This document shows positions 10,718 to 56,136 of a DNA stretch of 64,000 nucleotides, one piece after another. The DNA is from Siphonodentalium dalli. Taxonomy: Eukaryota; Mollusca; Scaphopoda; Gadilida; Siphonodentaliidae. A program made the translations under genes and the position numbers. The DNA lies in assembly GCA_032622095.1 (NCBI GenBank), contig CP136066.1, positions 41,677,835 to 41,741,834 of the forward strand, read 5' to 3'. Every line of letters starts with the position of its first letter. Within the stretch, counting starts at the first letter, position 1. The notes under the pieces are model-generated. The model saw only the letters and a list, made by a program, of their open reading frames with translations, had not been told where the DNA came from and searched no databases.

Positions 10718-11242
10718 TCAAGGAACAATGTTTTCATTACCAAATTGAATGTTTCCGTATCTGTCCGTTTTGATTCGGTTGTCATTAACACTGCGTGCGT
10801 TGCCCAGAGTAACGCCACCAAGAGGGAGCTGCAATTCACTAACAAACTCGGAAAATACTTCGTTAACTTCGCTCACCGCTCTTGCCAACAAATCTTTCAT
10901 GAAGGGGATGACATGCATTGGTCGTGGTGCGTCTGAACTGTCAGCCCAGAAATCACATCCCGGAACTAAGTTCTTTTTATGACCCGAACAAGTCGGATAA
11001 TGCCTTGTCCATGCATCTACTTCGCGTGTGGTGATTCCGCTCTGGTTATAGGTCAAGGCCATGGATACGCCATGCTCGACATGCGTGTTGACATTCAAGG
11101 ATGCATTCACAATGGTTGCCTTGAAAAACACATCAAGCATATCGCGTTCGAATGAGATCCTAAGATCTACTAAATCAGCCTGGTTGCTGAATCCCGTGGC
11201 TGTCTGTGTAAGGTTAATGGAGCTAGGACATCCACCCATAAC
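10718..11242 (-). CDS. Gene A exon 3: C-terminal half of secreted TULIP-like protein
   Basis: This is the last coding exon of gene A, entered in phase 0 after a CATCAATTGCAG acceptor (just above 11242) and closed by TGA at 10718. It adds 174 residues and starts V-M-G-G-C-P-S-S. It carries three cysteines (GGCPSS, YPTCSGH, PGCDFW) and the sequons NLT, NAS and NQS, which fit a secreted glycoprotein. The end (residue pattern LQLPLGGVTLGNA...YGNIQFGNENI) looks like the final strands of BPI/LBP-type proteins, where a hydrophobic P-L-P stretch precedes a short terminal strand. That match is by eye only. Joined to the other two exons it gives about 469 residues, close to the 450-490 usual for BPI/LBP. 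An exon 3 homologue for gene B was not found in the window. Confidence 0.75.
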   Translation of the reverse strand, partial: VMGGCPSSINLTQTATGFSNQADLVDLRISFERDMLDVFFKATIVNASLNVNTHVEHGVSMALTYNQSGITTREVDAWTRHYPTCSGHKKNLVPGCDFWADSSDAPRPMHVIPFMKDLLARAVSEVNEVFSEFVSELQLPLGGVTLGNARSVNDNRIKTDRYGNIQFGNENIVP

Positions 11243-11394
11243 CTGCAATTGATGAATTGGTTGACAATAAAGCATTCACTCTGAGTGTAAATATGAAAAG
11301 TCACAAATAACTTAGGAGGGGGCGACCTCGATACCATCATGTCTGCTTTTGTATTGTGTTTTACCCTTTTTGTAATACGACCCTGTCCAAAGAT

Positions 11395-11490
11395 GGTTAA
11401 AAGCCTTGTCCTGGTTGGATGGTTAAAAGCCTTGTCCTGGTTGGATGGTTAAAAGCCTTGTCCTAGTTGGTTAAAAGCATTGTGCTGGCT
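11395..11490. repeat. 26-bp tandem repeat in gene A intron 2
   Basis: GGTTAAAAGCCTTGTCCTGG occurs three times head to tail, with a fourth diverged copy. Confidence 0.85.
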
Positions 11491-11844
11491 GGTCAGTGTA
11501 TACCTTGAATTACCATGGATATATCGATCCAGTTTTGTGGTGGAATTCTACTTTTTCAGATTGTAAAACACAAATCGGTTTATTCAGATCGTCGTATCCG
11601 ACTTTTCCCGTTTTGTTCCAACTCCTCGCATGCATTCACACGAGGCACCAATGGAGTACACCGGTAATCCCTTTTCTAATGATTCGACTTTCGAACGAAG
11701 TATGAATGCAAATGGATATGATCCAGATGAAGTTATGTATGGTATGTTGATATATGTTACGACCAAAGGAAGTTAATGCAGTGTTTTTGTTTTTGTTTTT
11801 GTTTTATGCAAATATTTCCTGTCATACTATGTGTTGACATCCTC

Positions 11845-11896
11845 AAACGAGAGGCCGATCACGATCGGCAGATGTTTAACCCATACCTTGGCGATA
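11845..11896. repeat. Dispersed ~50-bp sequence with GATCGGC palindrome, copy 1
   Basis: It begins AAACGAGAG, contains the palindrome GCCGATCACGATCGGC, then AGATGTTTAACCCAT and CTTGGCGATAG. Other copies are at 23261-23312 and, inverted, 62159-62214. No longer shared flank is visible. Confidence 0.75.
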
Positions 11897-12387
11897 GCGA
11901 TTAGCTATTTTTTATAAATTTTATAAATCTTTACACCAACCTTTTCATGAGTGCAAAAGTTTCAACAATTCACACTTAATATAGTGATCGTGTGAAAAAT
12001 ATTTAGTTATCACTTTGTGTCAACAGGATTGGTGTAGGATGTTAATATTTTTAAGCAAATAAACCAAATGACCCTCACTATGCAGGTTAGGGGTGTGTTC
12101 CCGTCAACTATGCCAAGAACTACAGGTATAAACATAATCAATGGAAATATTTGAGTTATCAAATCGATAGAATGGGGTTAATCTTACCCAAACTAATGAA
12201 ATGATAAACACAAAATAGTCTATAACAAGACAGTCAAAGACTGGGGTCGCTCACCAGACTGCAAAGACTGATAAGACTGGGACTTTGGAGACCACAACAG
12301 TCAGAACTTTTCATAAACACTTTAAAAGAAGTAGATCTAAACAGGATGTGTGGCTAGAGAGGCTTCATGAATGTAGATCAGTGGATA

Positions 12388-12442
12388 TCTACCTTGAAAT
12401 TACCAAATCTACCTTGAAATTACCAAATCTACCTTGAACTTA
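12388..12442. repeat. 20-bp tandem phrase, three copies
   Basis: ACCTTGAAATTACCAAATCT is repeated about three times. Confidence 0.7.
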
Positions 12443-12769
12443 CCAACTGTACACTAGTGATCACCCCCTCCTCCAGCTCAAGAAGTCCCCTCTCGCCCGG
12501 GCTCCAGACTCCCCAAGTCTCAGGTTGAAATTTCACAACCGACATCTCAAACTTTCTGAATTGTTGGAAATTTACAATCTCACAAGCACTTTTTATAAAA
12601 CCATTTAGACATGTTTAAAGCCCAATTATCCATGGACCCAAAAACACTATATGTATGTCAGATTAATCAGTCAGGTAGTTCCAAGGTAGACGTTTTAATG
12701 AATTTTGTATTTTAATGATTTTTTAGACACAAAAGTCTTAAGTCCCCATAGTCTCGTCATTTCTTAACG

Positions 12770-13400
12770 GGTTGACCTCGTGTTAACAGATCTGAATCTC
12801 AGTCACTAAAGGATCCTCCATACTATATGGTCCAACCTCTCTTGAGAAGACATTATAAGTGTTACTATAGAGACATACAGTTATGTCCCTGGTCCCACCC
12901 TATTTAACCTGGTGACCCCATCTGCATAAATTTGAATCACAGACACCAAAGAACCCTTCATACTAAATATCAGTAAAATAAACCTGACGGTCCGTGTAAA
13001 GGAAGCATAATAAGAGGAAATCTGTCCTTTGCTTGGCCCCTATTTGACCAGGTGACCCCATTTGAACAAATCTGAACTACAGTCACCAAAGGACCCTTCA
13101 TACCAAATATGTACCCATTCAACCTGATGGTACACGAGAAGTCGTTTTTAAGAATTACTATGGAGGGCAAGAGTTATGGCCCTGGCTTCACAACCATTTG
13201 ACAAAGTGACCTCATTTGAACAAATCTGAATGTGAGTCACATAGGGAACATCCACACCAAATATGAACCCATTCAGTCTTATGATCTAGAGAAGATGTTC
13301 AAAGAATTGTTGACAGATGGATGGACGGACAGACAGATAGATGAACAGGTGACAGATGAGAAGTGATGACTATAGCTTCGTCTCAGGTGAGCTTCAAATT
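12770..13400 (+). repeat. Dispersed repeat family B (GTGACC...GGACGG...GGTGAGCT), copy 1
   Basis: It has phrases such as CCTATTTGACCAGGTGACC, GAACAAATCTGAA and GGACCCTTCATACCAAATAT, repeated internally, and ends in a GGATGGACGGAC run followed by CTATAGCTTCGTCTCAGGTG. Copies lie at 13800-14372 (+) and 58523-58915 (-). No open frame. The type is unknown. Confidence 0.6.
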
Positions 13401-13799
13401 TACATTTCATTGAACAAATCTGTCGGTCACCCCCCCCCCAACACTGTGGGGACATCCCTGTGAGAATATGACATACAACATTTATTTGAATGCCTGACTA
13501 CATTAGCTTAACAAAATTCCCATGACCTTGAGAGCCAGTGCATTCTCTGAGAATTATATTCCATTATGAAACCATCAGCTACCAGTGTCTTGGGGAGAGG
13601 AGTTGACATAGATAATTAGGTTTTAACGACTGCATACACAGCTTTGTGATACTCCTACAGCTGTGATCAAAACAAGGATTTTAATGGGGTGAACAAGGAA
13701 GAGATAATATGGTATGATACAGTGTGGTGTGGCAGGGACAGGAGATGGGGCGGGGAGGGTGGGGTTGGGTAGCTGTGATATGTCTAAAAAAATCAAAGG

Positions 13800-14372
13800 T
13801 CAAAATGCAATATTTTTTTTTTTTTAGAGTTATGTCCCTGGCTCTGCCCCTATTTGACCCAGTGACCCAATCTGAACCCCAGTCACCCAAGGTCTCACCG
13901 TACCAAATATAAGCTAAATCGGCCCAATATTTTTTTTAGAAGAAGTCATTGTAAGAATTACGATGAGTTATGGCCCTGGTTTCTCAACTAATTGACCGGG
14001 TGACCTGATTTGAACAAATCTGAACAGCAGTTACCCAAGGACCCTCCATACCAAATATTAGCTAAATCTTCCCAATGGTTCTGAACAAGAAGTCGTTGTA
14101 AGAATTACTATGGAGGAATAGAGTTATGGCCATGGTTTCGCAACTATTTGACCCAGTGACCTCATTTGAACAAATTTGAATGAGAGTCACCTAGGGAACA
14201 TCCACACCAAATATGAACCAATTCGGTCTTACGGTTTTAGAGGAGAAGATGTTCAAAGAATTGTTGACGGATGGACGGACGGGCGGACGCACGGACGGAT
14301 GGACGGACGGACGACGGACGAGGAGTGATGACTATAGCTCCACCGGAGAATTCGTCTCAGGTGAGCTAAAAA
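13800..14372 (+). repeat. Dispersed repeat family B, copy 2
   Basis: Same order of phrases as at 12770-13400, ending in a GGACGGAC microsatellite and the CTCCACCGGAGAATTCGTCTC phrase followed by AGGTGAGCT. It lies inside gene A intron 2. Confidence 0.65.
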
Positions 14373-15049
14373 GCATGTCATTGAATTTACAAACCCATAC
14401 AATAAGTCAGCCTCAAGAATACCAGCACCATTAATATTACCCCGGAACCCAAATGCAATTGAGGGAATTTCAAATAAGACATTTCCTCTAATGATGTATA
14501 TTCAATTGGTGATTTATTGAAACCCTTACTGAACCTGGATCAAAGTGAAAGGGATAATATTATATCTGTTTATCGCATAATATGTGTCTATGGAATGGTT
14601 TAATTTTAATCCCAAATCCATGCAAATCAAAAGTGGATCACCATCAACCTGGACATAATATAGGAAAATGATCAAATGAAAAGCATCAAAACCATATGAT
14701 GTGTGGAGAGAGTTAATCATTTTCAATGACATCATATCATGGAACTAAGGAATGTGTGGCTTAATTTTTGTCTAAGATAAGACAACAGTGTCTGTAAACA
14801 ACAATGTCTGTAAAACATCCCTACAAAGTAACAATGGACTGTTCCAATTTAATATTTTAGAATAGGTGTCCTATAGTGTACATTAACTAATGTAATGAAC
14901 CTGTTTCAACAAAGGGGTTAACTTAATATTGCACAGAAAACAGAACTCCGCCAGATAGCCATCAATCAATTTGACATTATTATAAACAAATGTTTAGCCA
15001 GTGGTACCACTATCGTCTCTTCATATTCCCAGCAGTAATTACTTGATTT

Positions 15050-15850
15050 ATAAAGGGTCATAACTCTGTTAAAATATATCGGATCAAACCCATATTCGAA
15101 CTTGATCTGTATTTAGGGGTGATAAATTCATATACCAAATTTGGTGTTGATCAGATGAAAAATGTTTTGAGTCATAGCAGCTTGGGTGAATTCTAAGTAA
15201 ACATAAGAGTGAAATGGTTAATTAAACAATACCAAAAACCATACAGATGAAGAACGTGCTAAAAAACCTAGGTTAGAAATATGAGGCAGATCAGAAGAAA
15301 TATGTTCAACTTATTGCATTGGATAGCATATCTGTAAAGGGTTAATTATTTTCTAAACCGATCAACCAATCAATGCCAAAAACTATACAGATGAGGGGTG
15401 TGTCATCATAAACCAAAATATCAAATATGAACACAATCGGACAAAAAATACCTCGGTTATAGCATCGGATTTTTTTATATTTTTTTTTTTCGAAAAAAAG
15501 GGTCATAACTCCTTTAAAATAAATCGGATCAAACCCATATTCGAACTCGATCTGTATTTTGGGTTCTGAAACTCGCATACCAAAAATTGTTTGAGTTATG
15601 ACAGCATGCGTGAATTCGAAGTCGAAAAAGGGCCATAACTCCGTAAAAAAAACTCGGATCAAACCCATATTCGAACTCGATCTGTATTTCGGTCTATACA
15701 CAATTTAGTTCCGATCGAATAGAAAATATTTGAGTTATCGCACCATGCGTAAAGTGTCTACGGACAGACAGACAGACATACGGACGGACGGACGCACGAC
15801 GAGTGGTCAATCCGGACGTCGACATTATGTTTACCATACTATGGTATGGG
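15050..15850 (+). repeat. Dispersed repeat family A (GGATCAAACCCATATTCGAA), copy 1
   Basis: The phrase GGATCAAACCCATATTCGAA recurs three times within the element, each time after GGGTCATAACTC-like sequence. It ends in a GACGGACGGACG run and GTGGTCAATCCGGACGTCGA, then a small TATGGTATGGGT palindrome. Further copies are at 23890-24480 (+), 45622-46140 (-) and, degraded, 59640-60110 (-). It is non-coding and its class is unknown. Confidence 0.65.
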
Positions 15851-16077
15851 TAACCATAAAAAGGTTGTTTTTTAAACTAATTTTTTAATATAAATACATG
15901 TAATTGGAAAATATCTCTCATATTGTGAGGGTCAACAGGTGTTGTTATAATACTATAGCGTAGATTGGTTATAGAGGATAATGATTTTCACCTTCAAATT
16001 GATAGTTTAAAATGGAAATCTTTTTTGAAAAATCACGAATTGGGCGCCTATTGTACTTAAATTTTGTTAACACAAAC

Positions 16078-16764
16078 CTCTAATTCAAGATGGCGCAGCA
16101 CATCGACTTTCCACATCTGGTCCAAAACGAAGCGAAGAGCGACGTTGTTATCGACAGTGAGAGTCAGTTGCGTGCCGGGTAAGAGCATCTGGTCGTCGTC
16201 AAACACGTGACGTCTTGGATCCGTCGGGACATCCATGTTTGGCAGCGTCATGAGGCTCACAAAAGCATGGCGACGTCGCACCGATTGGTCACGGTGAAAC
16301 ATGAAGTTCATGGACGTCGGAATGAACCTATTGGTTTCATAACCAGTATCCGAGAAATCGAAACTCAAAATATTTTTTTGTAATTCTGGACCTATGAGTT
16401 GTTTCAGTTTGACTTCGAGAGCATCGCGAAGAATAAATGACGATCGTCGTGCTCCTTCAATGGTAAGGTCCCGGATGTAATCGAATTCCTCAACATGTAG
16501 CTCCAGATCAAATCGAACACCCCCGTCAGTATCAGTTGATCGCCTGGATATAACGTGAGTTTCGATATCAACTACAGCCCCTGTCATGTCATAGGTTCGG
16601 TTTGATCTACCAAATTCGAATTCAATGGAACCGCTTGAAAATCCAATTCGAACGTTCCCAACTTGCGCTTCGTTCCTCAGGGGTGTCAGAATGAAATCCC
16701 CAACAGTGACGTCAGTGAAGGTCACGACTGCTGTGATGGGAAGGTCGTTGAATGGTATCCTCAC
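16078..16764 (-). CDS. Gene A exon 2: core of secreted TULIP-like protein
   Basis: This is the largest exon of gene A, 229 codons, open throughout. The acceptor is TTTTTAACTGTAG just above 16764, so the exon begins GTG AGG ATA CCA (V-R-I-P-F-N-D-L-P), in phase 0 with exon 1. The donor is GAG/GTTTGTG at 16078-16077, again phase 0. The exon aligns along its whole overlapping length with gene B exon 2: shared anchors are PF-D/N-DLP, LTPxR, DMxGxxV, VR-F/Y-D-LEL, FIxDALxxKxxQLL, ILSF, RFIP, MPNM-like LPNMDVPT and LLLPG-like MLLPG. It has one sequon (NRT) and no cysteine. The alternating hydrophobic strand pattern followed by an amphipathic helix fits the TULIP fold. This is family inference, not a computed match. 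Confidence 0.8.
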
Positions 16765-17196
16765 CTACAGTTAAAAAGTGTGCATGTTAGAGGAGGTGTT
16801 ATCTCCCTTACCCCCAAGAATCCTGAATACTTTACTTAACAGAGAAGGGTGCATGTTAGAGGAGGTGTTATCTCCCTTAGCCCCATGAATCCTGAATACT
16901 ATAGTTACAGAGAGGGGAGCATGAGTCCTGAATACTATAGTTAACAGATAAAGAATCATACATGTTTTGGTTCTCCTAAGATCCAAATTAAAGAACCAAA
17001 AAAAAGTAATATGTATTCTGGTTTCACATGGAACCAAACATTTTTCGAATTTTTGTCATGCGAGAGGAACCAATGTGACCTGCTTTGATTCTGTGTCTGG
17101 TTCCCCGGATATAAGCAGAACATGGAGCCATATAGTTAATTTGGGTCCAACATTTGGTTCATTATGAAACAATTATGAGTATTTGTGGAAACAATG

Positions 17197-18021
17197 TCCC
17201 GTGACACTATATATGTGTATGTTATAATGCCCCGTGACACTATATATGTGTATGTTATAATGCCCCGTGACACTATATATGTGTATGTTATAATGCCCCG
17301 TGACACTATATATGTGTATGTTATAATGCCCCGTGACACTATATATGTGTATGTTATAATGCCCCGTGACACTATATATGTGTATGTTATAATGCCCCGT
17401 GACACTATATATGTGTAGGTTATAATGCCCCGTGACACTATATATGTGTATGTTATAATGCCCCGTGACACTATATATGTGTATGTTATAATGCCCCGTG
17501 ACACTATATATGTGTATGTTATAATGCCCCGTGACACTATATATGTGTATGTTATAATGCCCCGTGACACTATATATGTGTATGTTATAATGCCCCGTGA
17601 CACTATATATGTGTATGTTATAATGCCCCGTGACACTATATATGTGTATGTTATAATGCCCCGTGACACTATATATGTGTATGTTATAATGCCCCGTGAC
17701 ACTATATATGTGTATGTTATAATGCCCCGTGACACTATATATGTGTATGTTATAATGCCCCGTGACACTATATATGTGTATGTTATAATGCCCCGTGACA
17801 CTATATATGTGTATGTTATAATGCCCCGTGACACTATATATGTGTATGTTATAATGCCCCGTGACACTATATATGTGTATGTTATAATGCCCCGTGACAC
17901 TATATATGTGTATGTTATAATGCCCCGTGACACTATATATGTGTATGTTATAATGCCCCGTGACACTATATATGTGTATGTTATAATGCCCCGTGACACT
18001 ATATATGTGTATGTTATAAGT
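17197..18021. repeat. 33-bp minisatellite, 25 copies
   Basis: The unit starts CCCCGTGACACTATATATGT and is 33 bp long; it repeats from 17197 to about 18021 with almost no variation. The first unit starts T instead of C, and one unit near 17417 has G for T. Because 33 is a multiple of 3 and the unit lacks stops in some frames, long artificial frames exist on both strands. It lies in gene A intron 1, within a split GGTTC/ACCAAA-rich repeat (about 16960-17165 and 18410-18560). Confidence 0.95.
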
Positions 18022-18703
18022 ACGTTTTGGGTGTCTTTGTTTCTGAATGTTCTCTTAGTTCGTAAATATGTTACACCGTTTAAAATTGATATCACACCAT
18101 GTTGGTTCACCGAGAATATATCCCCGAAGTTGATTTGATGTCTGAAATAAATATCGAATTATATTCATAAAGTTTTTGTACCATAGTTTTGCCCTATATT
18201 TGTGATATTACCAATAGAGTTACCCTGCCAGCAATCAAATGATCAAAGTCTTTTCATATGACTCGAAACAGTCTAGGCATGTGTACATTGGTATTTCAAA
18301 GGAATCCCTCTTGGTTTAGTCTTCCTAATATCAATTAAACCCCAAAACGCGTGGACATATTGTTAAATTTTAGACTATTACATTTAAGCTAGGACGTGTT
18401 CCCACACATGCACACTTTGAATTTGGTGGGTTCTTTGGGGAAACAAACTTAGGATTTGGTTTCAGATGAAACTAAATCAGTGTAGAACCAAACTGTTTGG
18501 TACTATGTTAGTATTTGGTTCTCCGAGGAACCAAATTTGGAGTTGTTTTCTTAGAGTGTATGTCTAAAGGAATTGAGATCTAAATATCTGAAACAATATT
18601 AATACTACAACATTACCGACTCCGTTTGTATCAGCCGAATTGTTTAATAAAGACGACAGAAGAACGCTATAGATAAGACCACCGGCCCCTTGGTAAAAAT
18701 ACT

Positions 18704-19524
18704 AAAATACCAAAATAGACTATACCAGTGACAAGCTCAAAAGGTCGATTTGGCTAAAACCAACTATCAACACCCTAATAAATTCTAGAAACCGATCATT
18801 TCAGCCAAAATATACACCGGTGTGTCTTATTGGCAATACGATGTCCCTTCCATTTGACATAAAACTCGGCGAAATTTAACGAAGTGAAGTCGAGATATCT
18901 TATCGGAAACTACCGAAATCTCCCGAAGAAATCGGGTCGTCAAAATCCCTGTCCGCTCAAAGGCCTTTGACCTAGTTATCGAGCAATATAGTCTTGTATG
19001 TCTAGGGTAGACTTACTCTATACATGCTCATATATGTTCACCAGATCATTCCGAAGCCACCTATACCTTTTTTATTTCACCCGATGTATTGTGCTCGATT
19101 ATTTCATTAAACGAATTCCAAAAAAACAAGACAAGTCTGCGACTGCCAGTAAATTTTGAGGGGCTTGCTGATTGTTTGACAATAATTGAGAGTAAAGTTT
19201 TTTTTTAAATTGGCTTGAAAAAATCAATATGCATAGATTTCCGATAGATAAGATAAGTGTATTGAAGAAACACTTGAATTATTAATTTTCTCTGTACCAA
19301 GAACAGGTTTATCTGATTTTAAATCATAAGTGAACGTTAAATAACGTTGGAATTAGTTTTGATACAATATTAAAATTCTGTGAATTTCACTGGTAGTAGC
19401 GTGACCTTGACCCCTGCATTCGTTTTTACTTTGGTTTTCAAAATTTACTGCGACTCGAAAATATTGATTTTTTAACTAGGTCAAAGGCCTCTGACTAACT
19501 GGTATAGTCTATATTGGTATTTTA
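18704..19524. mobile_element. TIR element of about 820 bp
   Basis: AAAATACCAAAATAGACTAT at the left is matched by an inverted ATAGTCTATATTGGTATTTT at the right. Subterminal AAAGGCCTTTGACCTAGTTA and its inverted counterpart AACTAGGTCAAAGGCCTCTG lie further in. No transposase frame. Confidence 0.7.
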
Positions 19525-19645
19525 ATTATACCAATTAACCTCTTCGCTGCTAAATGACGTTATGACGTCGTGTGCTGGGCTGTTGACATTATTGCCATTT
19601 TCCAATTGAAAAATATAACGGGAATTTCACAAGAACCATAAACAC

Positions 19646-20190
19646 ACGGGGTAGGAACAGCTCCATGAGAAAAGATCCTCTTGTGATTCTCGGTCCAGTT
19701 CACTGTCGATCCGTGTCCAGTTCACTTGTACTTGGTCCAAAACAGACGTGCTTTACACCATGTACCAAACTACCGTATCGCAATAACCATTAGCGATTAA
19801 ATTCAAACAAAAGTGAGTCTAGTGTGAAGTTTTAGTTCAAACATATGTGCACACTTATTTTACAAAAAATCTGTTACATAGATGTTCGGGTAGTGAACGG
19901 ATCTTATCAATGGTGAACTGGGACCCATCACTAGTGATCTGGAACATTTATTAAAATGGATAAATTCTATACTATTCCACATTTACTTAACAATTTCCAA
20001 CTAGTATGTCTTGATAGTTGAGGTAGCTGGCAAGGTATATATACGACAAATAAACTGCATATATATCTCTGTTGCGTAAAACTTGCGTTATTTACCATGG
20101 GAAAATCCACAGTAACCTTGACCAGATCGGATTAGAACTGGACTGGAGATAGGAAGATGTATCAGTCTCGCGGAGCAGTTCCTACCCCGT
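19646..20190. mobile_element. TIR element of about 545 bp with repeated subterminal motif
   Basis: ACGGGGTAGGAACAGCTCC at 19646 and the inverted GGAGCAGTTCCTACCCCGT ending at 20190 differ at one position. TCCAGTTCAC occurs twice near the left end and inverted forms (GGTGAACTGGGA, GAACTGGACTGG) occur towards the right, like transposase binding sites. Non-coding. Confidence 0.7.
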
Positions 20191-20199
20191 AATAAAACT

Positions 20200-22550
20200 G
20201 ACTCAGAGGCGTTATTTCGCTAAAATCCGTTTCAGATTCTGGATCCAGATTACAGATTGGTCCCCGTACGACTTGGTTCGGCAAAAGAACAGACCACAAA
20301 TTTGCAGAATCAGTAAACGAACAGACCGTAATCCTAATTTCGTGGTAATCCGATTTGGATTCCGATTCCGATTACGGACTCAAATGTTCGTAATGTAAAC
20401 AAACCGAGATTCCGCCACCTCAGAGTTTAAAAACACAATAAAACATAAGAATCCGTCTCGTGTGTACAAATTATTGCAGAATATAAACGATCTATATCAA
20501 AGAATTTTAAATGCGGAGACAAATTTGTTTTATTGAATGTAAACTGGGAGAATATTACTGAAATTAGCCAAATAATAACGCTATTGATAGTAACGCTGGG
20601 GGAGCACTTCGGTTGATGGCAAATCATTGTTGATTGTCACTTTCATATGTCCATTTCATAATTCCATCCTTAAAATACCGCCCGAACGCATGTCGATTTC
20701 GAATTCGGCGGATACGTCACCATTGACCGAATTCATATGAACCTGCATGGATATGTCTTCTGCTGTGTTCGTTATTATAATGTTTCTTCTTATTCAAGAA
20801 ATAGTAGGATTATATGGTATCGATGGATTATCAGATACACGTATGTACTATCATCTAGTCTTAAAGTTATAGCAATTTTAACATGTTTTGTTTCGTTAAA
20901 TGCAGTCGTTTTGCGCAATAGTCTCTGTATAGACAACAGACACATGTTCTAGGGACGTGGCTAGAAGTTTCCTCAAATTTCCGGCCAACTGGACCCCCCC
21001 CCCCCCATTGAACCAAACATCAATCTCACAGGTTCGCAGAATTCAATTTGCTCTCCTTGGAAATATCCAATCTGACAAACACTAAGATTGGAAAATTACC
21101 AACTTTTACTGGTTGAAAAAAATCAAACAATGAGAACAATGCCAACCTATATATGGTGTCAAATTAATGTCCAACTAATGTTGTGTCATGCATGACATTT
21201 CCGACTGCTGGAATGTACCAAAGTTTAGTTTAGATATATTTATTTCAAATATATGTCAAATTTAGATAACACATGATATATAACACATACAAAGGAATTG
21301 GGGGACAAGTACTGACTCACTTAAGGGTACCCCCCTCTCCCATATGTTATTACACTGAAAAAATAAATAATTAGTAATGGCAAAGCAACATGACTACCAA
21401 AACAAGTTGAACATATATACAGATCACTGGACACCCCCTCTCTCGAGTTAGTCATAAGTTTGTATATGTATTTATTTAAAATCGGGTTTGTTTGTTGCGT
21501 TTGTTGGCTTGTACGTATCATTATTTGAAACAGTTAGTCAAAATAATCCTGATTTTCCTCACGTATGAATGACTGCACAGCTTAGCAAATTGTACCAAAG
21601 TTCGGGGTGGGGGTCGAGACACCCAATCAACCCCTGTCGTCACGTCCCTGTTCAACTGACAAGTTCCGTGTGTTCTTCACAACATCTTCGGAATTTGATT
21701 CAGGAGGCCTAGAGCTGTCATGTTTAGATATGCTTGCCATCATCAATAAACACACTTTAACTTGAAAAAAAGATGCGATTAAGTCGGATTGGCAGCAAAT
21801 TATGTGCCGTGTATACACACATAGAAGAACAGCATGACTTTCACAACAAACATGCACTTTATAAATATAAGATACAAATGATACTTGTGTCAAATACATG
21901 AGCCATGTTTGACTCTGGGTGAGAGTTTCGGAGACCACGTGGATTTCAAAATCTGACCTAGAATCCGAAATTAGCTCCGCCCCCCGTAATCGGCTTTGGA
22001 TTCTCAATCCGGATTTTAGCGAAATTACGGCTCTGTTGAAAGGCTATTATTGTTCACAGTCGTGGAACATCATACACTGTTTGAAACTTCGATATACAGT
22101 TATTTCGATGAACCAATCTCTTGAGTTCCAGTTATGTAAAATGGCGTATTGCTAGTGTGCTGAACTAAGTCCGTAGTACCTAGGGACCATAATAGCACAC
22201 GAGTGTGTCTATACGACACAAGTGCCAACAAGGAATGATAGAACGAGAGGGACAGCCTCGATTTCTATCCGTCCGCGATGGTACATTGACGTATCAACAA
22301 ACTCATCAACACACGTGCCGTTCTGTGTTTATTATACACGCCAACCGTCCTAGAATCCGTGAATTAAATACCCAGATACGTGCACGGTTCATTCAGGCCA
22401 CATACGGATTTGTAAACATGGAACATCAATGTAATAACATTTTTATCGACTTTATATTTACAAAATGCTGTAGTTTCCAGAACCAGTAATGTCGTACGGT
22501 CATACTGATGTATCATACTCTAACTGTTGTTTTAAATTAAGCTTCTTTAA
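20200..22550. other. Gene A intron 1, unassigned sequence
   Basis: There are shared phrases around GGATTCCGATTCCGATTACG (20350) and the inverse at 21960-22030, and C-runs near 21000. No exon with good splice sites or family resemblance was found. Confidence 0.4.
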
Positions 22551-22555
22551 ATTGT

Positions 22556-22827: not shown

Positions 22828-23022
22828 CTCTCCGTTGAGAACTGGATGATGTGAGGGTTCCGTGTTTTCTCTGCTGAGACCGGCATTGACTACATCAGGG
22901 TGGACCCCCATAATCGCTCCCCACCCTCTCAGACATTGGCCGTCAGCGCCTTGAACCGAAGCCCGCAACAAGAGATTGTGAACTACAACCAACAAGATCG
23001 CTATAGACCTTCGTTGCCACAT
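22828..23022 (-). CDS. Gene A exon 1: signal peptide and N-terminus of secreted TULIP-like protein
   Basis: It contains 65 codons from ATG at 23022 to a phase-0 donor (GGAGAG/GTATAATC). Residues 1-25 form a signal peptide: basic MWQRRS, then the hydrophobic IAILLVVVHNLLL. The mature start follows with C-L-R-G-W-G-A-I-M-G-V-H-P-D-V-V-N-A-G-L. Gene B has the same pattern, and it recalls the N-terminal N-P-G-x-V-x-R-I helix start of BPI/LBP proteins. Just upstream on the minus strand is TTTCTATTTTCAG, nine bases before the ATG; gene B has an equivalent acceptor-like site seven bases before its ATG. This suggests a conserved intron in the 5' UTR, so the true promoter may lie further upstream. Reading through the donor gives only one more residue and a stop. 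Confidence 0.75.
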
Positions 23023-24480: not shown

Positions 24481-24481
24481 T

Positions 24482-44680: not shown

Positions 44681-44810
44681 TGAGACACCCACGTATTACC
44701 ATGTCCCTGTGAATGAAATTGACAGCTGATACATCAATTAACAGGGGGTTAATCGACCAGACACCTTGTCGCCACGTCCATGTGTATCAAATATGGGTAT
44801 ATTATCCGGT

Positions 44811-45285: not shown

Positions 45286-45621
45286 TGAAACTTGATGACA
45301 CTCCATACACAAACCTTCTACAGTCACGTACATTAACGTTGTAACGTTCAATAATCTTTCATATTACTGGAAAATTCTTTATGATTGGGAAAATTGTATA
45401 GTTAGTAGAAACAAAAAATACATACTATTTTGATTTATGTTTGTAATTATGGTTCATAGTACATGTATTAGCGGAATGAGAAAATGTAATTTCTTACAAA
45501 CACTTGTAGATCTTACAAAAGAAAACTCGTCATAATATTGACCCCAGATTGCATGCTATTTACCGGACAAAGTTATATAGCCTCGATAAATGCTAGTGGA
45601 ACTAAATAGTTTTTATGTGTA

Positions 45622-46140: not shown

Positions 46141-46642
46141 TGGAGCGATATTAAACCGACTTAACCAATTTCATCCCACGCCTTTGGACTATTAGCCATT
46201 AATATGCATGGATATATCATTTTCTGATGTCTCGTATGCCAATGTGCAGATAAAGAAAGATACGGTATTTATTTTTTTCAAAATTTCAACAACACTCGTG
46301 ACATGCTATACTAACAGTAGACTACATCATTGAAGTGTATCATATGCTCTGAAATCATAAATCTGATAGGTTTAGTACAGATGCCAAGATTCAGCATAAA
46401 TAAAACCAGTGATTAGTTGACAGCTTTGATATTAATGGGTCACCAGTGAGGTGGCTTATCTTGATGGCTGTGTTAATGGTAGAATTTGATACATTATCAT
46501 TGTAGTTAATTAGCTATTTCGTGGCCACGAATTAATTATTTCCTGACCACGAAATAAAAAAACATTTCCCATGTTTTAAACCAGCCACCGTAGTTAAGTG
46601 TGTTGTAAATATATATTATTATATTCACATTCCAGACCAACG

Positions 46643-46843
46643 ATGAAGCGACACAGGTCAGCGTTGCTGCTGTTACTACTGGTGACAAGTAATCTTCTTC
46701 TAGAAACGGCCGGCTATGGTCGCTACGGCGCATGTCTGAACGACTGGGGCGTTGTTATGGGAATGCACCCTGACCTCGTTAACGCAGGCCTCAATGAGAT
46801 CGAATCGAGTCTTCCGCCTGCACTGAAGTATATTAATGGACAG
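46643..46843 (+). CDS. Gene B exon 1: signal peptide and N-terminus of secreted TULIP-like protein
   Basis: It contains 67 codons from ATG at 46643 to a strong phase-0 donor (GGACAG/GTGAGC). The N-terminus MKRHRS followed by ALLLLLLVTSNLLL is a clear signal peptide; the mature part has A-C-L-N-D-W-G-V-V-M-G-M-H-P-D-L-V-N-A-G-L, then an amphipathic stretch ending Y-I-N-G-Q. This matches gene A exon 1 almost position for position. The more upstream in-frame ATG at 46598 was not chosen because it precedes a plausible acceptor (CACATTCCAG) seven bases before the chosen ATG, where gene A has the same layout. The two genes point away from each other, with about 23.6 kb between their ATGs, so a shared short promoter is unlikely. 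Confidence 0.8.
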
Positions 46844-46949
46844 GTGAGCTTACTGCAAACAAATATTTTATTCTCAATTACCATATGCAGATATTACACA
46901 ATACACAAAAACGAATACAAAATACAATAGGATCTAGCAATAGGCAAAT

Positions 46950-47180
46950 ATTTCCAGGCGGCAATTTCATCTATAAGTTCTACCAAGATTTACGTTCGCC
47001 TCAATGGTGAATGGGCGAGTGGACAGGGCCGACAACATGGTACAACTCCGGTGCCTTGACCACATTTCGAGTGAATCCATTCTGATCAGAGGTGACGATT
47101 TGGACGATGCCATGTTTTAAGCCGGATAATAACTTCAAACTGTACAAGTCTTTATGCGAATGAAACGATCTCGGCCTGCA
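46950..47180 (+). other. Coding-like but interrupted stretch after gene B exon 1
   Basis: One frame reads GGNFIYKFYQDLRSPQW, stop, MGEWTGPTTWYNSGALTTF, RVNPF, stop, then SEVTIWTMPCFKPD. The residue mix looks protein-like, but two stops break it and no family is recognised. A TTTCCAG acceptor-like site precedes it. It may be an old pseudo-exon or chance. Confidence 0.25.
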
Positions 47181-47409
47181 GCTGAAATAATGTACAGTTT
47201 TCAGTTATTATCCTATACTTACTTTACAGTTTGTTCGCAGACGACAGTTATAAATTTGACTTGGTCTTGTATACGCGGTATGGTAATGCGATCGTTGTAG
47301 TGAAATATATTAACCCTTTGATGACGGGAGCTACGCTGGTGCAGCATTGAATATCATGTGCCAGTGCATTCTCTTATATATGCGAGTCTCCCATAGGGAA
47401 CCTCGCATA

Positions 47410-47932
47410 CACTCTTAGAACAAATGTGTATAAATACTACACAATATGTGTTACATTTGATCTTAAACAAAATTGTGTAGAAATACAACATGACATAAAT
47501 GTGTCGGTGGAATTTTCTCAACATTGAATATGAGTGAATATGTGAGTATATTATATTTAATAGATGAGATATGTTCTATTTAAGACATAAACCTCGTAAA
47601 AGCTGCCAGAATAACAAATTGGCAGCTGCTTTAAAACTTTGTGCTACACAATTATGTGTTGTTCAGTTTTTACACAAACATAGTGTATAACAAAGTTTAA
47701 AGCTGCTGCCAATTGTTTGTTCTGTGGTAGCCTTTACGAGTTTTGTGTCTCCAATAGAACACATTTCATCTAATAACTATGATACACTCACATATTCAAT
47801 CATATTCAACGTTGATGATATTCCACCGACACATTTAATAATTATATGTCATGTGTCATTTCTACACAATTTTGTTTAAGATCAAATGTAACACATTTTG
47901 TGTAGTATTTATACACATTTGTTCTAAGAGTG
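47410..47932. mobile_element. Tc1/mariner-type MITE with TA target duplication
   Basis: CACTCTTAGAACAAATGTGT at the left and its exact inverse at the right. Flanking TA at 47408-47409 and 47933-47934 sits in the host MITE sequence CGCATATATAAG, which confirms the TA duplication. The 523-bp element folds back along most of its length; non-coding. Confidence 0.8.
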
Positions 47933-47941
47933 TATATAAGA

Positions 47942-50900
47942 TAATTAGCAGGGTTACCCGGCGTTGCCCAGGTTAAAGTGAAACCCTCTGCATATTGTGG
48001 ATATATGGTGGGAATAGATACTCTTGTTCAAAGAGTTACACATATTCTCATAAATTATATATCCAAATAGCATCACAAAACATTATTCTTACACATGGAA
48101 TATAAGTATTAGCTCACCTTGTCGGATCGGAGCGATTGTCATTTTGTTTATCGCGATTAATCCGTCCCACAAAAAAAGAACTATTTATTTATTTACAACT
48201 GCATACACTTCTTCAGACGTTATAACATGAACATCATAAACACATTAGTTCGCAAAAATAAAAGACGACAATTGGGTTTTACATAGAGATGTATCAATCA
48301 ATCTAGTGGGTTTGATTCAGATTTTAAGGACACCTGGTTATGATATATCCATGAAGATACAGATGTTTTAAAGAAATGTCCAGGTGCTCCTCTGTTCATG
48401 GTGCTATATACTGGCTAATTATTCTTAGTTTAAAATAAATGTTGCTATGTTACTATATCAGCTACATATGCCCGACACAGAGCGAGATTTTGAGTTGTTT
48501 ATGTTAGGCGATGAGTCTGTTCTAAAACATGAAAGATATCCTCTGTATATTGTGCAGATATAACCTTGTCAGATGTCAGTATTGGGGGTTCCTGAAAAAG
48601 TCATGTGCCACTGACTCCGTTTTCTTTTATCTCAGAAGAAATTATATTTGACGGCACACTGTGACCACTATTGTTGAACAGGCCTTCTATACATTGCCAT
48701 ATCTCTTGTAACTTGCTTGTGTTTTGTGTTTTTAACACGCACGATTTGATTCCTCATATCATTTGAGAAGAATGTGTATTAATTTGATGTTAATTGGCAC
48801 TAAACATATTTCCATCAGTTTTGGTGACCCGCCCGTCCCTATTTCGGACTCAAGCGGCGCCACCTTTGACACCATTGAACCACAAACTTAGACTCTTTAT
48901 GGAGATAAATATATATAGAATTGTTGAAAATTGGCGAGTATACAAATTCATATTAAATCCATATCTCTCACCCCATACGGCACCAATTTGGCGTATTAGA
49001 TTCCTCGAATCACGGAGAAGAATATGTATCAGTCTGGTGGAAATCGGCGCTAAACATATTGTTTATCAATTTGTGTGTCTCTCTCACCCTCTGTCGACCC
49101 CTGTCTCGAATGGCACCACTTTGACATCATTAAGCCACACAATTAGACTCCTGATATCATCGAGATAAATATTTATAAGTTTGGTGCTAATCGGCGACTA
49201 AACAATTTTTTTAATCAAATTTAGTGCTCACCCCACACCCCACACCATCTCTCACACAAACGGCACCAATCATGTAGTTATATCACATGATTTGATTCCT
49301 CGTATGTATAAGAGTGTGTATCAATTTGGTGGAAATTGGCGCTAAAAATATTGTGTATCAATTCTGGTGCCCCTCTCCTTTTCAGTGCACCTCCTGATTG
49401 GAATGACGCCAATTTTTACAATTTTAATCCACGCCATTAGAATCCTCATACCATGTGGATGATTTTGTATAAGTTTGTAAGCAATCGGTGACTAAACAAA
49501 TTCTTATCAAATTTAATGCCACCCCCCCCCCCCCCCCCCACCAAATCTCACATCCAAACGATACAAATTTGGCATTTTTAAATCACACAATTAGATTCCG
49601 TGTATCATGGAGAAGAATGTGTATCAATTTTGTGGAAAATTATTTTATAAATGTTAGTGCCCCTCTCCCTTTCAGTGCAACCCTGACTCGAATGACGCCA
49701 CTTTTGACAGCTTTAAGCCACCCCATTATACTTCTCATACCATGTGGATGATTTTGTATAAGTTTTTGTATATAATTGGCGAGTATAGAAATTCGTATCA
49801 AATTTAGGCCCCCCCCCCATATCTCTCATCCAAACGGCACCAATTTGGCGTATCTAAACCACACGATTAGATTTCTCATATCACGGAGATTATGTATCAA
49901 TCTGGCAGAAATCGGCGCTAAACATATTGTTCATCTTTTTTGTGGTCCTCTCACCCTCTATGCATCCTGACTCGAACGGCCCCACTTGTGACAGCTTGTG
50001 ACATCCTTAAACCACCTAATTAGACTCCTGATATCATGGAGATGATTATTGGTAAATTTGGTAGTAAATTGGTACTAATCGGCGACTAAACCAATGTTGA
50101 TCAAATTTAGTGCCCACTAACCACCATCTCTCACCCAAACAGCACCAACATGGCGTCTTTAAATCACACGATCAGACTCCTCGTATTATGGATAAGAATG
50201 CATATCACTTTGGTGAAAATTGATGCTAAAATTGTTGCATATCAATTTTGGTGCCCCCCCCCCCCTGCCTTTCAGTTTAACTCTGACTCGAATGACGCCA
50301 CTTTTGACAGATTTAAACCACACCATTAGACTCCTTAGTTCCCCTCCCACGATCTTTCATCCAAACGACAGCAATTTGGAGTCTTTAAATCGCACAATTA
50401 GATTCCTTGTATCATGGAGAAGAATATATATCTATTTGGTGGAAATCGGCGCTAAAATTAGTTTTATCATTTTTGGTGCCCCTCTCTTCTTCCGTGCATC
50501 ACTGACGCGAATAGCGCCACGTTTGACATATTTAAACAACACCATTAGATTCCTCATATCATGGGAATTATTATATAAAAGTTTCGTGGCAATCTGCGCA
50601 AATTATGTTCTACTCCTCCCCCTTTTCTGCCCCTGACAACGGCGTCACTTTAGAAAATTCTAACCCACACCATTATCTTTCTCGTAAAAAGTTACCCCTA
50701 GTAGACAGTTTGGTGCCATCTAGATAGTCCCTCGGCGCTAAATTACATGTAGTTTATAAATTTTGGTGCCCCTCTCCCCTTCCATGCATCCCTGACTCGA
50801 ACGGCGCCACTTTTGACATATTTAAACAACATCATCAGATTCTTTATCTCATGGGGATGATTAAATATAAGTTTCGTGGCAATCGGCGAAAAAAAATTTG

Positions 50901-51093
50901 TCTGCCCCTCCCCATTTTCTTCCCCTGACAACAACGGCGTCACTTTAGAAAATCCTAACCCGCACCATTATCTTTCTCGTGAAAAGTTAACCCTAGTAGA
51001 CCCCTTGGTGCCATCTAGATGGTCCCCTGTGAATTTCTATAGAACACAGACAGACAGACAGACAGACAGACATTCGCAAATATAGATATAGAT
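47942..51093 (+). mobile_element. Insertion of 3.15 kb with a degenerate ~285-bp array
   Basis: It starts near TAATTAGCAGGGTTACCCGG and ends with a CAGA run and ATAGATATAGAT tail, inserted into the split MITE. From about 48780 to 51040 a unit averaging about 285 bp repeats roughly eight times, each with two related halves (GGCGCTAAACATATT... and GGCGACTAAAC...) and phrases such as TCATATCATGGAGA and GACTCGAACGGCGCCAC. The microsatellite-like 3' tail suggests a retroposed non-autonomous element, but no RT is present. Confidence 0.6.
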
Positions 51094-51764
51094 GCCTGGC
51101 TTACAAGGACAAGATAAATATTGTTAGGCAAGTGTATTCTCTTATAATTACAACTACTTTAGATTTCGCTTAAATGCGTTCATTTGATTGGTCAATGCCC
51201 TTAGATACGCTTGGTAGCGACAATCTATATCAGCCGAGGGAAATGTCGTTTCCCGCATCACAACGCGCAGTGATACTTTAAGAAATTGGGCGACATGCAC
51301 CAACGGTCGCCCCACACCATGACGCAATTTCCTAAAAGCATCCATAGTTACCATACCGTGAAAATAAAATTAACGAATTAGACAGATCAGTGAAACTATG
51401 AAATGCGATAATTTTGTTGGGGATAAAGGAATGTTTTACATAACTATGAGGGGGACCACCCCCTTTTCGTACGCCGGATTCCGAGGTTAATATAGAGTAT
51501 TCCGGATGCCGAGTGTCAGTACGCCGGATGCCGAAACCTGTATATTTCGTATTCCGGATGCCGAAATTACAATGACAGATATTATTTAGTGTTGTTTTTT
51601 GCATTCATAATTAACTAATAATTAACATACTTAATTTTCCTACCCGTCAATAGAAACAATGACAACAATAGTGTAGACGGTGAACGCAAAATGTATAGTA
51701 CGAGAGATAACTCGATCGCTTTCGAGACTTCGACTTGCGACCTTGAAAATCTAACTTAGTAAAC

Positions 51765-54602
51765 ATGGCGCTCAAATTTGAGGCATCTAATCCAGGAGAT
51801 ATTGGTCGACCTCTGCACCCTCCGGACTCAACGTCACCCCACTAATTTTCTTTCTTAATGCCTCCTCTAATTTATTTTCGATCGTTAACCAGAAAAAAAA
51901 CGTGGCCGCAGAGACTCCAGACAAGATGGCGTTCATCATGGCGTCCATTTTATTTATATGCACCAGGTCTCTTTGATCGCCGTTATAGTAAAGATGATAT
52001 CACATACGTTCTTGTTTTCCGCTCGATTCGTTATGCTAATATACAACCCTTATAAATTGGAAAAAAATCCGACACCAGAATCAAATATGGCGGCAAATAT
52101 GGCCGCCGAAATGTGAAAATAAGCTATATTTCTGACATTTCACCACATTTCGTTTGTCTCTGTGGGAAAATATTGGCATCTTGGCGTGAATTTATACATT
52201 TATCGTATAGAAGACTCATTAATAAACACAAGGCGACCATAATATACATTCATTGTAGGATATTTTTGTCCGATATCACGTTTTCCCAAATGCCGGTATA
52301 ATAGGTCAAAGCCGAATCGACGCTAATAACGCGATGTAATGTTTCGAATCAATGAATGTTATTGCTATTATAACACCACCCATGCATATATATGTGCAGT
52401 AGATACTCGAGCTAGGATTCTTCTTATACCTGAGTTTAGGAATATTCACCCAAATCCAAGATGGCGGCCAAAATGGCCACCAGAATCGCCGATTTTAACA
52501 TCAGTGAGCGTTATTGTCATGACAAATCCACACCTGTTTACTATTGTGAGTTGGGAACACTTAGGCGAAGAACTGTCCTTGTACCATATCCAAATAAAAG
52601 TCCCCAAAAATCTAAAATGGCGCCCACAATGGCCGAAATTTCCGAAATATTTTGAAAAATCAACGAAATTCCCTCCTTTCCACATCATTGGGCATTATTT
52701 TCGAGAAAACTGGACACACGCTGACAGTTGAGTTGGAAATACTGAGGTGAAGTAATTACCTTGCATCTCATGCAAGAAATTGTTTTCCAAATTGAAGATG
52801 GTGGCCAAAATGGCGACCGAAATTTGAAAACAAGCTCACATTCCTTTACTTTCTTACGATGGGCCTTATTGCTACGCGATTTATGCCCACAATTACATGT
52901 TCATATGGAAAATGTATATGAAGTACTCAATTGAGTTTGGCAAATTCCTCACAGTCAAGATGGCGATCAAACTGGCGGCCAGAAATTGAAAAGAAGTCGA
53001 TTTTATCACATACTAATTTTAACTTTTTGTCATTATTTCGATGGACAAAACGGTACATAATATAAGCCATCTATGAGTTCCAACATAAGTCGTAGCCTTC
53101 TGGAAGGATGAAAACCCACAATTAATAATCGCGATGTGGCATTTCGAAATCCATTCTTCACTAAGCGCCCATAATGACCGTAACCGTATATAGGTGTGCC
53201 GAATAGTCATATTTTAACTTCCAAGAATCAAAACAACAGTACCTGAGTTTATTCTGAATTGCCATATTCAGCATTATCTGGACCAGTTTCCGTCTCTTCG
53301 TCAGATTAATCTATCTCGCTCACACCAACACAGTTTTCTAAACTTCTTTGTAGAAAGGTCCCACTAATCGGAATGTGTCAAACAATGCATATGACGTTGC
53401 CGGTCTCTATCTGCGTATATTAAGCTTTGATAACCTGATGGGGATAACAACGTCAACATGTGCACATGGTCAACATGTGCACCTTGTGATCTTCACAAAC
53501 AGCCACTTCTCAATATATGGTTAATCAATTCACATACTCATCTAATGCACTGACGTACCCGGAAAACTTCTGAATATGGCTTCGAATGTTGAAAGCCTGA
53601 CATTTGACGGATGCCTTTCTGCTAAGGCGTAGAAGACCATAATGCATAATATACCCACACTTCTTGACCGCCTACTTGACTGAAACTCAAATGAATACAT
53701 ACTTCATATCAATATTCCATATCAACATGTAATGGTGGGTAGAAATCGCGAAACAATAACGCCCATCGTAGGAAAATAAATGAATGTAGGCGTGTTTTCA
53801 AATTTCGGTCGACATTTTGGCCGTCATCTTCGATTTGGAAATCAATTTCTTGTATGAGATGTAAGGTAATTACTTCACCTCAGTATTTCCAACTCAACTG
53901 TAAGAATCGTTGAGTTGTCTCGACAATAAATGTATAAATTACGCCAAGATGCCAATATTTTCCCACAGAGACAAACGAAAGGCGGTGAAATGTCAGAAAA
54001 ATAGCATATTTTCACATTTCGGTGGCCATCTTGACCGCCATATTGGATTCTGGTGTCGGAATTTTGGCTAGTTTGTAAGGGTTGTATATTAGGATAACGA
54101 ATCGAGCGGAAACAAGACCCCATGTGATATCATCTTTACTATAATGGTGATCAAAGATACCTGGTGCATATAAAAAAAATGGCCGCCATGATGGACGCCA
54201 TCTTGTCTGGAGTCTCTGCGGCCACTTTATTTTCTTGTTAACAACAGAAAAAAGTTAGAGGAGACATTAAGAAGGAAAATTAGTGGGATGAAGTTGAGTC
54301 CTGGTGGGAGGGGTGCAGAGGTCGACCAATATCTCCTGGACTAATGCATCCGGATGGAATTCAGTTCATCACGCCGTCCGGAACAGCGGAGTTTTTGTTT
54401 GTCTCTGTCAAATGGAACCAATATTTCATTATCGGAGCTAAAAACCCTCCTCATCAATGAGTACGGTGTTACTCAGTGGGCCGCATCGTTGGGTGTGGCG
54501 AATTTCAAAACAAAAATATCATTGAATAGGCTAAAACCCGACCCAGAATCCCCCATGGAAGGTTTTTATGCTGTGACACGGAGACGGAATGGAGCAACGT
54601 AA
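51765..54602 (+). pseudogene. Small transposon ORF (~93 codons) split by a fold-back insertion
   Basis: An ATG at 51765 opens MALKFEA and is cut at 51787 by the fold-back element; sequence from 54344 continues in the same frame through NISLSELKTLLINEYG and QWAASLGVANF to the stop at 54602. The two parts stay in frame whether or not a 3-bp target duplication is removed. I recognise no domain. As the only open frame of the GAGGGGG-ended element it could be a regulatory or DNA-binding remnant, or chance. Confidence 0.4.
51788..54343. mobile_element. Giant fold-back element, shorter deleted copy
   Basis: TAATCCAGGAGATATTGG and inverted CCAATATCTCCTGGACTA ends, same family as 33978-38939. The right arm lacks roughly 0.9 kb: near 53930 it jumps from the TTGTCTCGACAATAA region straight to the TTACGCCAAGATGCC region. 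Hence the palindrome is asymmetric. Confidence 0.8.
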
Positions 54603-55291
54603 AGGGATAGTTGCATAGTATTCCCACGTCTCATTCTTTCTTTGAATATATATGGTCATATATAGAATGAATTGCACATTTGATACTACCAATGCGTTGT
54701 TTTAGCTATAAATGTTTGGCAAAAATGGGTTAAATTGGTATAAATAGTATTCCGGATGCCACCCTCTGTTATGGGGTATTCCAGATGCCACCCCCCCATT
54801 TTAGGCCGGATGCCGGATGCCAGAGGGGGTGGGTGGTCCCCCTCAACTATTCCACCATTAGTATTCGCATATATCCAGCTTCGTGTCAATACTAATATGA
54901 CATGGCAGTGGACATGAGAGCATAGAACGCACCTTTGTTTACTTTTCGAGTTTGTCACCGGAGACCGCAAATTCGGTGGGGAAGTTTGGGAACACCCCTT
55001 CGGAATTGCTATCGAATCGGATTGTCTTTATGACAATAGTTGTTCTAGAATCGTTTTAAATAAGTGAAAATTACACCAGCAAGTACTGTTTAATAGTTTA
55101 CGGGTGTGATGTCTTGCTTTTGTATAGTTGGAAACAGAGATCGAATTGTGTGTGTTCATCTCGAACTTCCGGTCAGTCGCCATTTTTTATTCTCGACCCA
55201 ATTTCCCATTTTACTATTTTAGTGTTTTGAATATAGTTTCCTTAAAAAAAACTAGTTTAATTACCAACTATTATGCGGATTGTCGTAATTA

Positions 55292-55424
55292 TAAGCAATC
55301 AACGTCGTTTTCGATGCATCTGTCGGCGCAGAAGTGTCTGATGCCGAACTACATACTTAGTATGTAATTTGGCATCAGACACTTCTATACGCCGACATAT
55401 GCATCGAAAACGACGTTGATTGCA
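55292..55424. repeat. Hairpin with about 60-bp arms
   Basis: TGCAATCAACGTCGTTTTCG arms run through GCAGAAGTGTCTGATGCC-like sequence to a short ACATACTTAGTATGT centre. Confidence 0.8.
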
Positions 55425-55547
55425 TATATATGCGATGATCCATATGGGAGACTCGCATATGTAAGAAAATGTATTGGCACAGGGTTTTCACAAAATTTCG
55501 GATAGCTCCTGTCATGAAGGGTTAAATCGTTTCACATCTTTTTACAG

Positions 55548-56136
55548 ATAACCTTGCCTTTTGACGACCTGCCAGTCAGTATACATGCTACATTCAATAA
55601 CGTCGAGATAGGAGGTTTAACGCTCACACCATTTCGGCAAGAATTCCTGGCAGCCATGCTGGGAATAACCTTTATTAGAGGTAGTATAACGCTAGGCGTC
55701 GATGGATCGGAATCCACTAAGGACATGAGTGGAGTGGAAGTTCAGTTAGAAACAAGCGTGAGATCTTACCGCACGGTTGTAACAAACGTTGGCGTCAGAT
55801 ATGACGTCGAGCTTCGTATTATTGATGGCAACGCGGTTCGCAATTTAGTGATGCAAGCAGAACCAGGAACCCGCCATTTTATTTCTGATGCGCTGAAAAT
55901 AAAGTTCCGACAGCTGCTTGCCATTGATTCGCGTTACCACATTCTAAGCTTCACGATTCCAGACCGCAACGACGACACACGACGATTCATACCTTCAGAA
56001 GTAGCATATATTTTCAATTATGACCAATCAGAGAACGGGAACCACGTGTATGCAGCACTGATGGCTATGCCAAATATGAGTGTACCTACTAATCCGAGAA
56101 AATTCGTCTTTGCAAACAGTGAACTGTTACTTCCAG
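55548..56136 (+). CDS. Gene B exon 2: core of secreted TULIP-like protein
   Basis: This is 196 codons plus one base, entered in phase 0 after the CACATCTTTTTACAG acceptor and left by a consensus donor CCAG/GTGAGC in phase 1. It begins I-T-L-P-F-D-D-L-P and follows gene A exon 2 throughout: LTPFR, DMSGVEV, VRYDVEL, FISDALKIKFRQLL, ILSF, RFIPSEV, MPNMSVPTNPR, LLLPG. By eye about four residues in ten are identical. Gene A has no intron at the LLLPG position and continues about 33 more codons in the same exon, so gene B either has an extra intron here or is broken. The frame reading past the donor (to 56354) does not resemble gene A. The rest of the gene was not found before 64000. Confidence 0.8.

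What the first reader, a model, noticed from the sequence alone, without database searches (positions are those of the whole stretch)
10718..56136. Divergent pair of secreted, probably TULIP-fold paralogues
Two genes on opposite strands share exon order, phase-0 junction after N-G-E/Q, the C-L-x-x-W-G-x-x-M-G-x-H-P-D-x-V-N-A-G-L start and the whole of exon 2. Gene A totals about 469 residues with signal peptide, four cysteines and four sequons. The lipid-binding TULIP assignment (BPI/LBP-like) is by pattern only; the family could be a lineage-specific one with so few introns.
Basis: partly seen in the sequence, partly recalled or inferred. Interest (0 to 1): 0.75.

Follow-up and report, generated by a model that had tools for sequence, protein, structure and literature searches.

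The report
Small family of probably secreted proteins
The two genes look real and belong to a small family of probably secreted proteins with at least five copies in this large genome; they may be distant cousins of lipid-binding immune proteins, but that could not be proved here.

Summary
Gene A (three exons, minus strand, 468 aa) and gene B (plus strand) are divergent paralogues sharing exon 1, the phase-0 N-G-E/Q junction and 38% identity over 196 aa of exon 2. The 2.23-Gb genome also holds gene B's third exon, starting 545 bases past the window end; gene C, an inverted near-copy of B; and two single-exon paralogues on other contigs, L004 (intact) and L003 (frame-shifted start). Both single-exon copies read through the positions of A's two introns, supporting the splice model without RNA. 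All five copies have an acceptor-like site 7-9 bases before the ATG. A and B/C carry their second intron at different positions. The TULIP/BPI reading is not established: no credible Pfam or PDB match, uninformative structure models, no profile-profile signal above shuffles; but a PF02886 protein of the same genome also fails that last test, so it has little power. BPI's N-domain cysteine pair and many-exon structure are absent. Best guess: a divergent secreted lipid-binding-type family, TULIP at about 0.45.

The parts
22828..23022 (-). Gene A exon 1: signal-peptide-like start, CLxxWGxxMGxHPDxVNAGL motif, donor after N-G-E (phase 0)
16078..16764 (-). Gene A exon 2 (229 codons), 38% identical to gene B exon 2 over 196 aa
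10718..11242 (-). Gene A exon 3 with stop codon; 28-33% identical to the corresponding regions of B, L003 and L004
23032..23034 (-). Acceptor-like CAG 9 nt upstream of gene A ATG (possible shared 5'UTR intron)
   Evidence: same feature in 5 of 5 paralogues; 250 of 7477 background ATGs; criterion written after seeing the sites
46643..46843 (+). Gene B exon 1, donor after N-G-Q (phase 0)
46633..46635 (+). Acceptor-like CAG 7 nt upstream of gene B ATG
55548..56136 (+). Gene B exon 2, donor at LLP|G (phase 1); exon 3 lies outside the window at window-equivalent 64545-65149

Best explanation
Genes A, B and C on one contig, plus L003 and L004 on two others, form one family of secreted proteins of about 465 residues. 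The most likely working is an extracellular, two-half, barrel-and-helix (TULIP-like) protein that holds lipids, for example microbial or dietary lipids; A would be fully soluble, while B and C carry a very hydrophobic stretch before the C-terminus that could seat them on membranes. Shown: gene structures as open, spliceable frames; paralogy; hydrophobic leaders; two cysteines conserved in the intact members. Inferred: secretion, fold, lipid binding, membrane seating.
For: Five paralogues, four intact at 463-468 aa and L003 with a 433-aa main frame. Hydrophobic N-termini in A, B, C and L004. One Cys in exon 1 and one in exon 3 in each of A, B, C and L004 (in L003 the exon 1 Cys lies in the other frame). 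Hydrophobic segment near residues 382-410 in B and C and the matching place in L003 (19-residue means up to 2.25, 2.36 and 2.46); L004 is borderline at 1.65 and A has none. Low-confidence models give strands then helices in exon 2, and strands, a long helix and short strands in exon 3, an order that would suit two TULIP units. Each half of the family profile has its best, non-significant local match to the corresponding half of BPI (P 0.23 and 0.098). By eye, the C-terminal end resembles that of BPI (sequence).
Against: No Pfam match above cut-off in 5 of 5 members, while in the same genome 4 of 5 PF01273 places and 4 of 6 PF02886 places found pass the cut-off. hhalign local score 17.0 against a block-shuffle mean of 18.9, sd 2.9 (60 shuffles), global 3.7 against 4.6, and the reversed family scored higher locally at 22.9. 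The best 50 Foldseek rows shown for each model name no BPI, LBP, CETP or takeout chain, though the models were too poor to count. Helix and linker positions that I matched by eye were not reproduced in the hhalign path.
Confidence: 0.45

Rival explanations
1. A secreted family of some other beta-rich fold, unrelated to BPI/LBP; its job would be structural or recognition, such as a matrix, egg or mucus protein, rather than lipid binding.
For: No detectable homology to a TULIP model or structure; lacks the BPI cysteine pair; no viral or prokaryotic relative found.
Against: Length near that of BPI, the order of weakly predicted elements and the C-terminal likeness are compatible with TULIP; the tests have little power, as a PF02886 protein of the same genome also fails hhalign.
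Confidence: 0.4
2. True members of the BPI/LBP/CETP family that have lost most introns.
For: Canonical BPI-type exons exist in the same genome.
Against: No PF01273 or PF02886 match, no N-domain cysteines, three or one coding exons rather than about 16.
Confidence: 0.1
3. Decayed copies: the genes are no longer functional and the open frames are leftovers.
For: L003 is frame-shifted in its first exon and further remnants are degenerate.
Against: A, B, C and L004 have full open frames although 9 of 10 pairs are at or beyond synonymous saturation; the tenth, B-C, has dN/dS 0.53.
Confidence: 0.05

Closest known systems
BPI/LBP/CETP family (PF01273, PF02886)
   Same: Secreted-type leader, about 450-470 residues, possibly two halves; C-terminal end resembles BPI's by eye
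   Different: No profile match, no N-domain cysteine pair, three or one coding exons against about 16 in chicken genes (PMC3253384, passages); the conserved cysteines sit at the N-terminus and mid-protein instead
L023, a single-frame 550-aa PF02886 protein of the same genome
   Same: Single open frame with a hydrophobic leader by eye; a TULIP-type gene without visible coding introns
   Different: No significant similarity to the family; passes the PF02886 cut-off (30.1 bits, 27.1; cut-off 23), which no family member does
Spliceosomal intron gain by tandem duplication or Introner insertion (PMC4974935, PMC9860276; passages only)
   Same: B/C intron 2 is at a position where A, L003 and L004 have none, and in B is flanked by a shared TACTTCCAGG
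   Different: No defined inserted element was shown; a repeat near the intron's 3' end stops roughly 75-85 nt short of the acceptor; the test of the 5' end did not complete

Membership tests
BPI/LBP/CETP (TULIP) family | Match to PF01273 or PF02886 | tested here: not met
   0 of 5 members at E up to 10 (HMMER's filters drop most weak matches); the same genome has 4 PF01273 and 4 PF02886 places over cut-off
BPI/LBP/CETP (TULIP) family | Two N-domain cysteines forming the BPI disulphide | tested here: not met
   No cysteine between the exon 1 Cys and the exon 3 Cys in A, B, C and L004, nor between residues 6 and 271 of the L003 main frame; feature as stated in PMC3253384 (passages)
BPI/LBP/CETP (TULIP) family | Gene of about 16 exons with conserved sizes | tested here: not met
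   Three coding exons in A, B, C; one in L004 and in the L003 main frame; the 16-exon figure is for most chicken genes of the family
BPI/LBP/CETP (TULIP) family | Conserved proline at the C-terminus | not tested
   Named in PMC3253384 (passages); no trusted alignment to BPI was obtained
BPI/LBP/CETP (TULIP) family | Secreted protein of about 450-480 aa | tested here: met
   463-468 aa in the four intact members, hydrophobic leader judged by hydropathy only
TULIP fold | Super-roll of beta strands around a long helix | tested here: inconclusive
   Models of A exon 2 (aligned with B) and of A exon 3 alone: mean pLDDT 33.8 and 32.1
TULIP fold | Profile-profile similarity to solved TULIPs | tested here: inconclusive
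   Score 17.0, P 0.34, not above shuffles; controls: CETP against BPI+LBP P 3.6e-16, a canonical exon (L019) P 2.9e-9, but L023, a PF02886 protein, only P 0.025
TULIP fold | Binds lipid | not testable with these tools
   needs biochemistry

The most novel reading that the evidence does not exclude
An undescribed secreted protein family with a new or very divergent fold, in which paralogues acquired spliceosomal introns independently: A's second intron and B/C's second intron sit at different sites, two paralogues have no coding intron while keeping an acceptor-like site before the ATG, and the B intron is bounded by a repeat of its insertion site, so the family would be a natural record of intron gain.
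Probability: 0.25. Interest if true: 0.5.

Novelty: new variant of a known kind. Interest (0 to 1): 0.35.

Why it matters
If the fold is TULIP, this is a fast-evolving branch of extracellular lipid-binding proteins that lost the hallmarks used to find them, so profile searches would undercount the fold in this lineage. Independently, five paralogues with three different coding-intron layouts make intron gain and loss directly comparable within one genome.

Tried and rejected
Libraries: Pfam (four separate exon frames, A and the first two exons of B, five members), NCBIfam (A and partial B only), PHROGs (five members), PDB by profile: nothing credible. Weak names discarded as below cut-off or chance: DUF7688 (E 0.015, one member), STK_08120-like (E 0.064, two members), three unnamed PHROGs (best 0.018), COQ9 and two other chains (E 0.95-1.7), BamA (E 0.58). 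Scans of viral contigs, prokaryotic genomes, phages (18, exon 2 of A only) and plasmids (116, L004 only): no relative. Structure jobs and Foldseek: uninformative. hhalign to BPI/LBP/CETP: not significant. Bridge through L023: no similarity. Full-retrocopy origin of L003/L004: considered, then doubted because both keep the acceptor-like site before the ATG; partial cDNA-mediated intron loss that spares a 5'-most intron would also fit (recalled). Single-element insertion as origin of B intron 2: not supported. Host: the haemocyanin domain PF14830 (mollusc-type, recalled) gave no hit, but nothing rang in the controls either, so no taxon is claimed; that the host is an animal is only my inference. 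Dropped row: a hit on C5 (E 9.56; 29% over 80 aa, E 3e-5 in the 10-kb-piece search) was not followed. No eukaryotic genomes or proteomes other than the own genome could be searched, so lineage restriction is not shown. Papers: listings; passages only of PMC4974935, PMC9860276, PMC2823732 and PMC3253384. None of the listings named this family; that is no proof that it is undescribed.

Full report
What is in the window. The exon 1 motif occurs twice on opposite strands and never in 100 shuffles. Gene A has three exons, 23022-22828, 16764-16078 and 11242-10718 on the minus strand, with GT...AG borders and phase-0 junctions, giving 468 residues, four cysteines and four sequons. Gene B starts at 46643 on the plus strand; exon 1 ends after N-G-Q, and exon 2 runs 55548-56136. 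Exon 2 of the two is 38% identical over 196 residues and exon 1 44%.

What lies outside it. The window is C6:41677835-41741834 of a 2.23-Gb genome in nine contigs, hence eukaryotic by inference. Five places encode exon 2 relatives at E up to 0.001, the window's two included. With the single-frame copies as queries, gene B's exon 3 was found just past the window at window-equivalent 64545-65149, completing a 464-aa protein, and gene C, an inverted near-copy of B (84% in exon 2, 464 aa), at C6:41785798-41777119. L004 on C3 is an intact single-exon gene: 478 codons from stop to stop, 463 aa from its ATG. L003 on C2 has a 433-aa main frame covering all but the start, with the leader in another frame. 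Further hits of the L004 protein are degenerate: two loci on C7, each with stops and frame changes and each followed by the same long open frame, and an exon 1-like piece on C3; a weak C5 hit was dropped.

Why the splice model is sound. L004 runs without interruption through the positions of both A introns, and the L003 main frame does so too (NG|V and LDLR|V in its letters). This is independent of splice-site guessing, but is not RNA evidence.

Intron layout. Intron 1 is at the same place in A, B and C. Intron 2 is at LELE|V, phase 0, in A and at LLP|G, phase 1, in B and C. B intron 2 is bounded by TACTTCCAGG on both sides; in C the shared run is CTTCCAGG. The tree is (A,L4,((B,C),L3)) with support 96.9/99 for the B, C, L3 group; the two other placements tried are rejected (AU p 0.016 each). 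So intron 1 was either ancestral and lost in L003 and L004, or gained twice. In 5 of 5 genes a CAG with a pyrimidine-rich tract lies 7-9 nt before the ATG, against 250 of 7477 ATGs in the surrounding sequence; the criterion was written after I had seen the sites, and B and C are near-copies, so at most four cases are independent. It suggests that a 5'UTR intron is shared, also by the copies without coding introns, and speaks against L003 and L004 being full retrocopies. Intron gain at B/C intron 2 is a possibility, not a result: exon ends that look like acceptors can match by chance, and the repeat found near the intron's 3' end (40 matches scored of 222 candidates, its own place included) stops roughly 75-85 nt short of the acceptor; the search for the other intron end did not complete.

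Selection. B and C differ by about 36 synonymous and 66 non-synonymous changes, dN/dS 0.53; in the other 9 of 10 pairs synonymous sites are at or beyond saturation, so their ratios are not informative beyond showing that protein similarity outlasted synonymous similarity. B-C differences cluster in alignment columns 40-200 and 360-400; columns 0-40 and 200-240 have none, which could reflect gene conversion.

Protein features. Leaders are hydrophobic in A, B, C and L004. One cysteine in exon 1 and one in exon 3 are conserved in these four; A has two more, L004 one more. B, C and L003 have a hydrophobic stretch before the C-terminal 60 residues or so; L004 is borderline there and A lacks it.

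Is it a TULIP? Against: no credible library match in 5 of 5 members, no credible PDB profile match, hhalign not above shuffles and below the reversed control, absence of the BPI cysteine pair and exon pattern. For: size, the order of weakly predicted elements, and the fact that each half picks the matching half of BPI as its best, non-significant alignment. The test has little power: CETP is found by BPI+LBP at 3.6e-16, but L023, which passes the PF02886 cut-off in Pfam, reaches only P 0.025 in the same set-up. The models have pLDDT near 33, so the structural comparison says nothing either way. I put TULIP at about 0.45.

Verdict. A real, small paralogous family of probably secreted proteins; the pair is part of a cluster of three plus two dispersed copies. 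The fold assignment stays a hypothesis.

Noticed in passing
L023 (C1:251213438-251214064): A 550-aa single frame with a PF02886 match over the cut-off: a second, unrelated-looking TULIP-type gene without visible coding introns in this genome.
   Followed up: partly
L045 and L046 (C7 near 44.81 Mb and 47.96 Mb): Two degenerate family copies about 3.1 Mb apart, each followed by a near-identical long open frame (681 and 589 codons) with a GDS motif that recalls an SGNH hydrolase, as if copied together as one larger unit, perhaps with a retrotransposon.
   Followed up: partly
window 4394-6856 and 60649-62118, minus strand: Broken reverse-transcriptase frames: RVT_1 in 5063-5638, 5623-6072 and 60649-61719.
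   Followed up: no
window 17193-18019: Tandem array of a 33-bp unit, 25.1 copies, 99% matches, open in several frames; lies inside gene A intron 1.
   Followed up: no
3' end of gene B intron 2, L006:345-544: The first 115-125 or so of the last 200 intron bases belong to a repeat with 40 scored places in the genome, its own included.
   Followed up: partly
genes B and C, columns 0-40 and 200-240 of the coding alignment: Stretches without a single difference beside stretches with dS of about 0.17-0.31, which could mean gene conversion between the two inverted copies.
   Followed up: no
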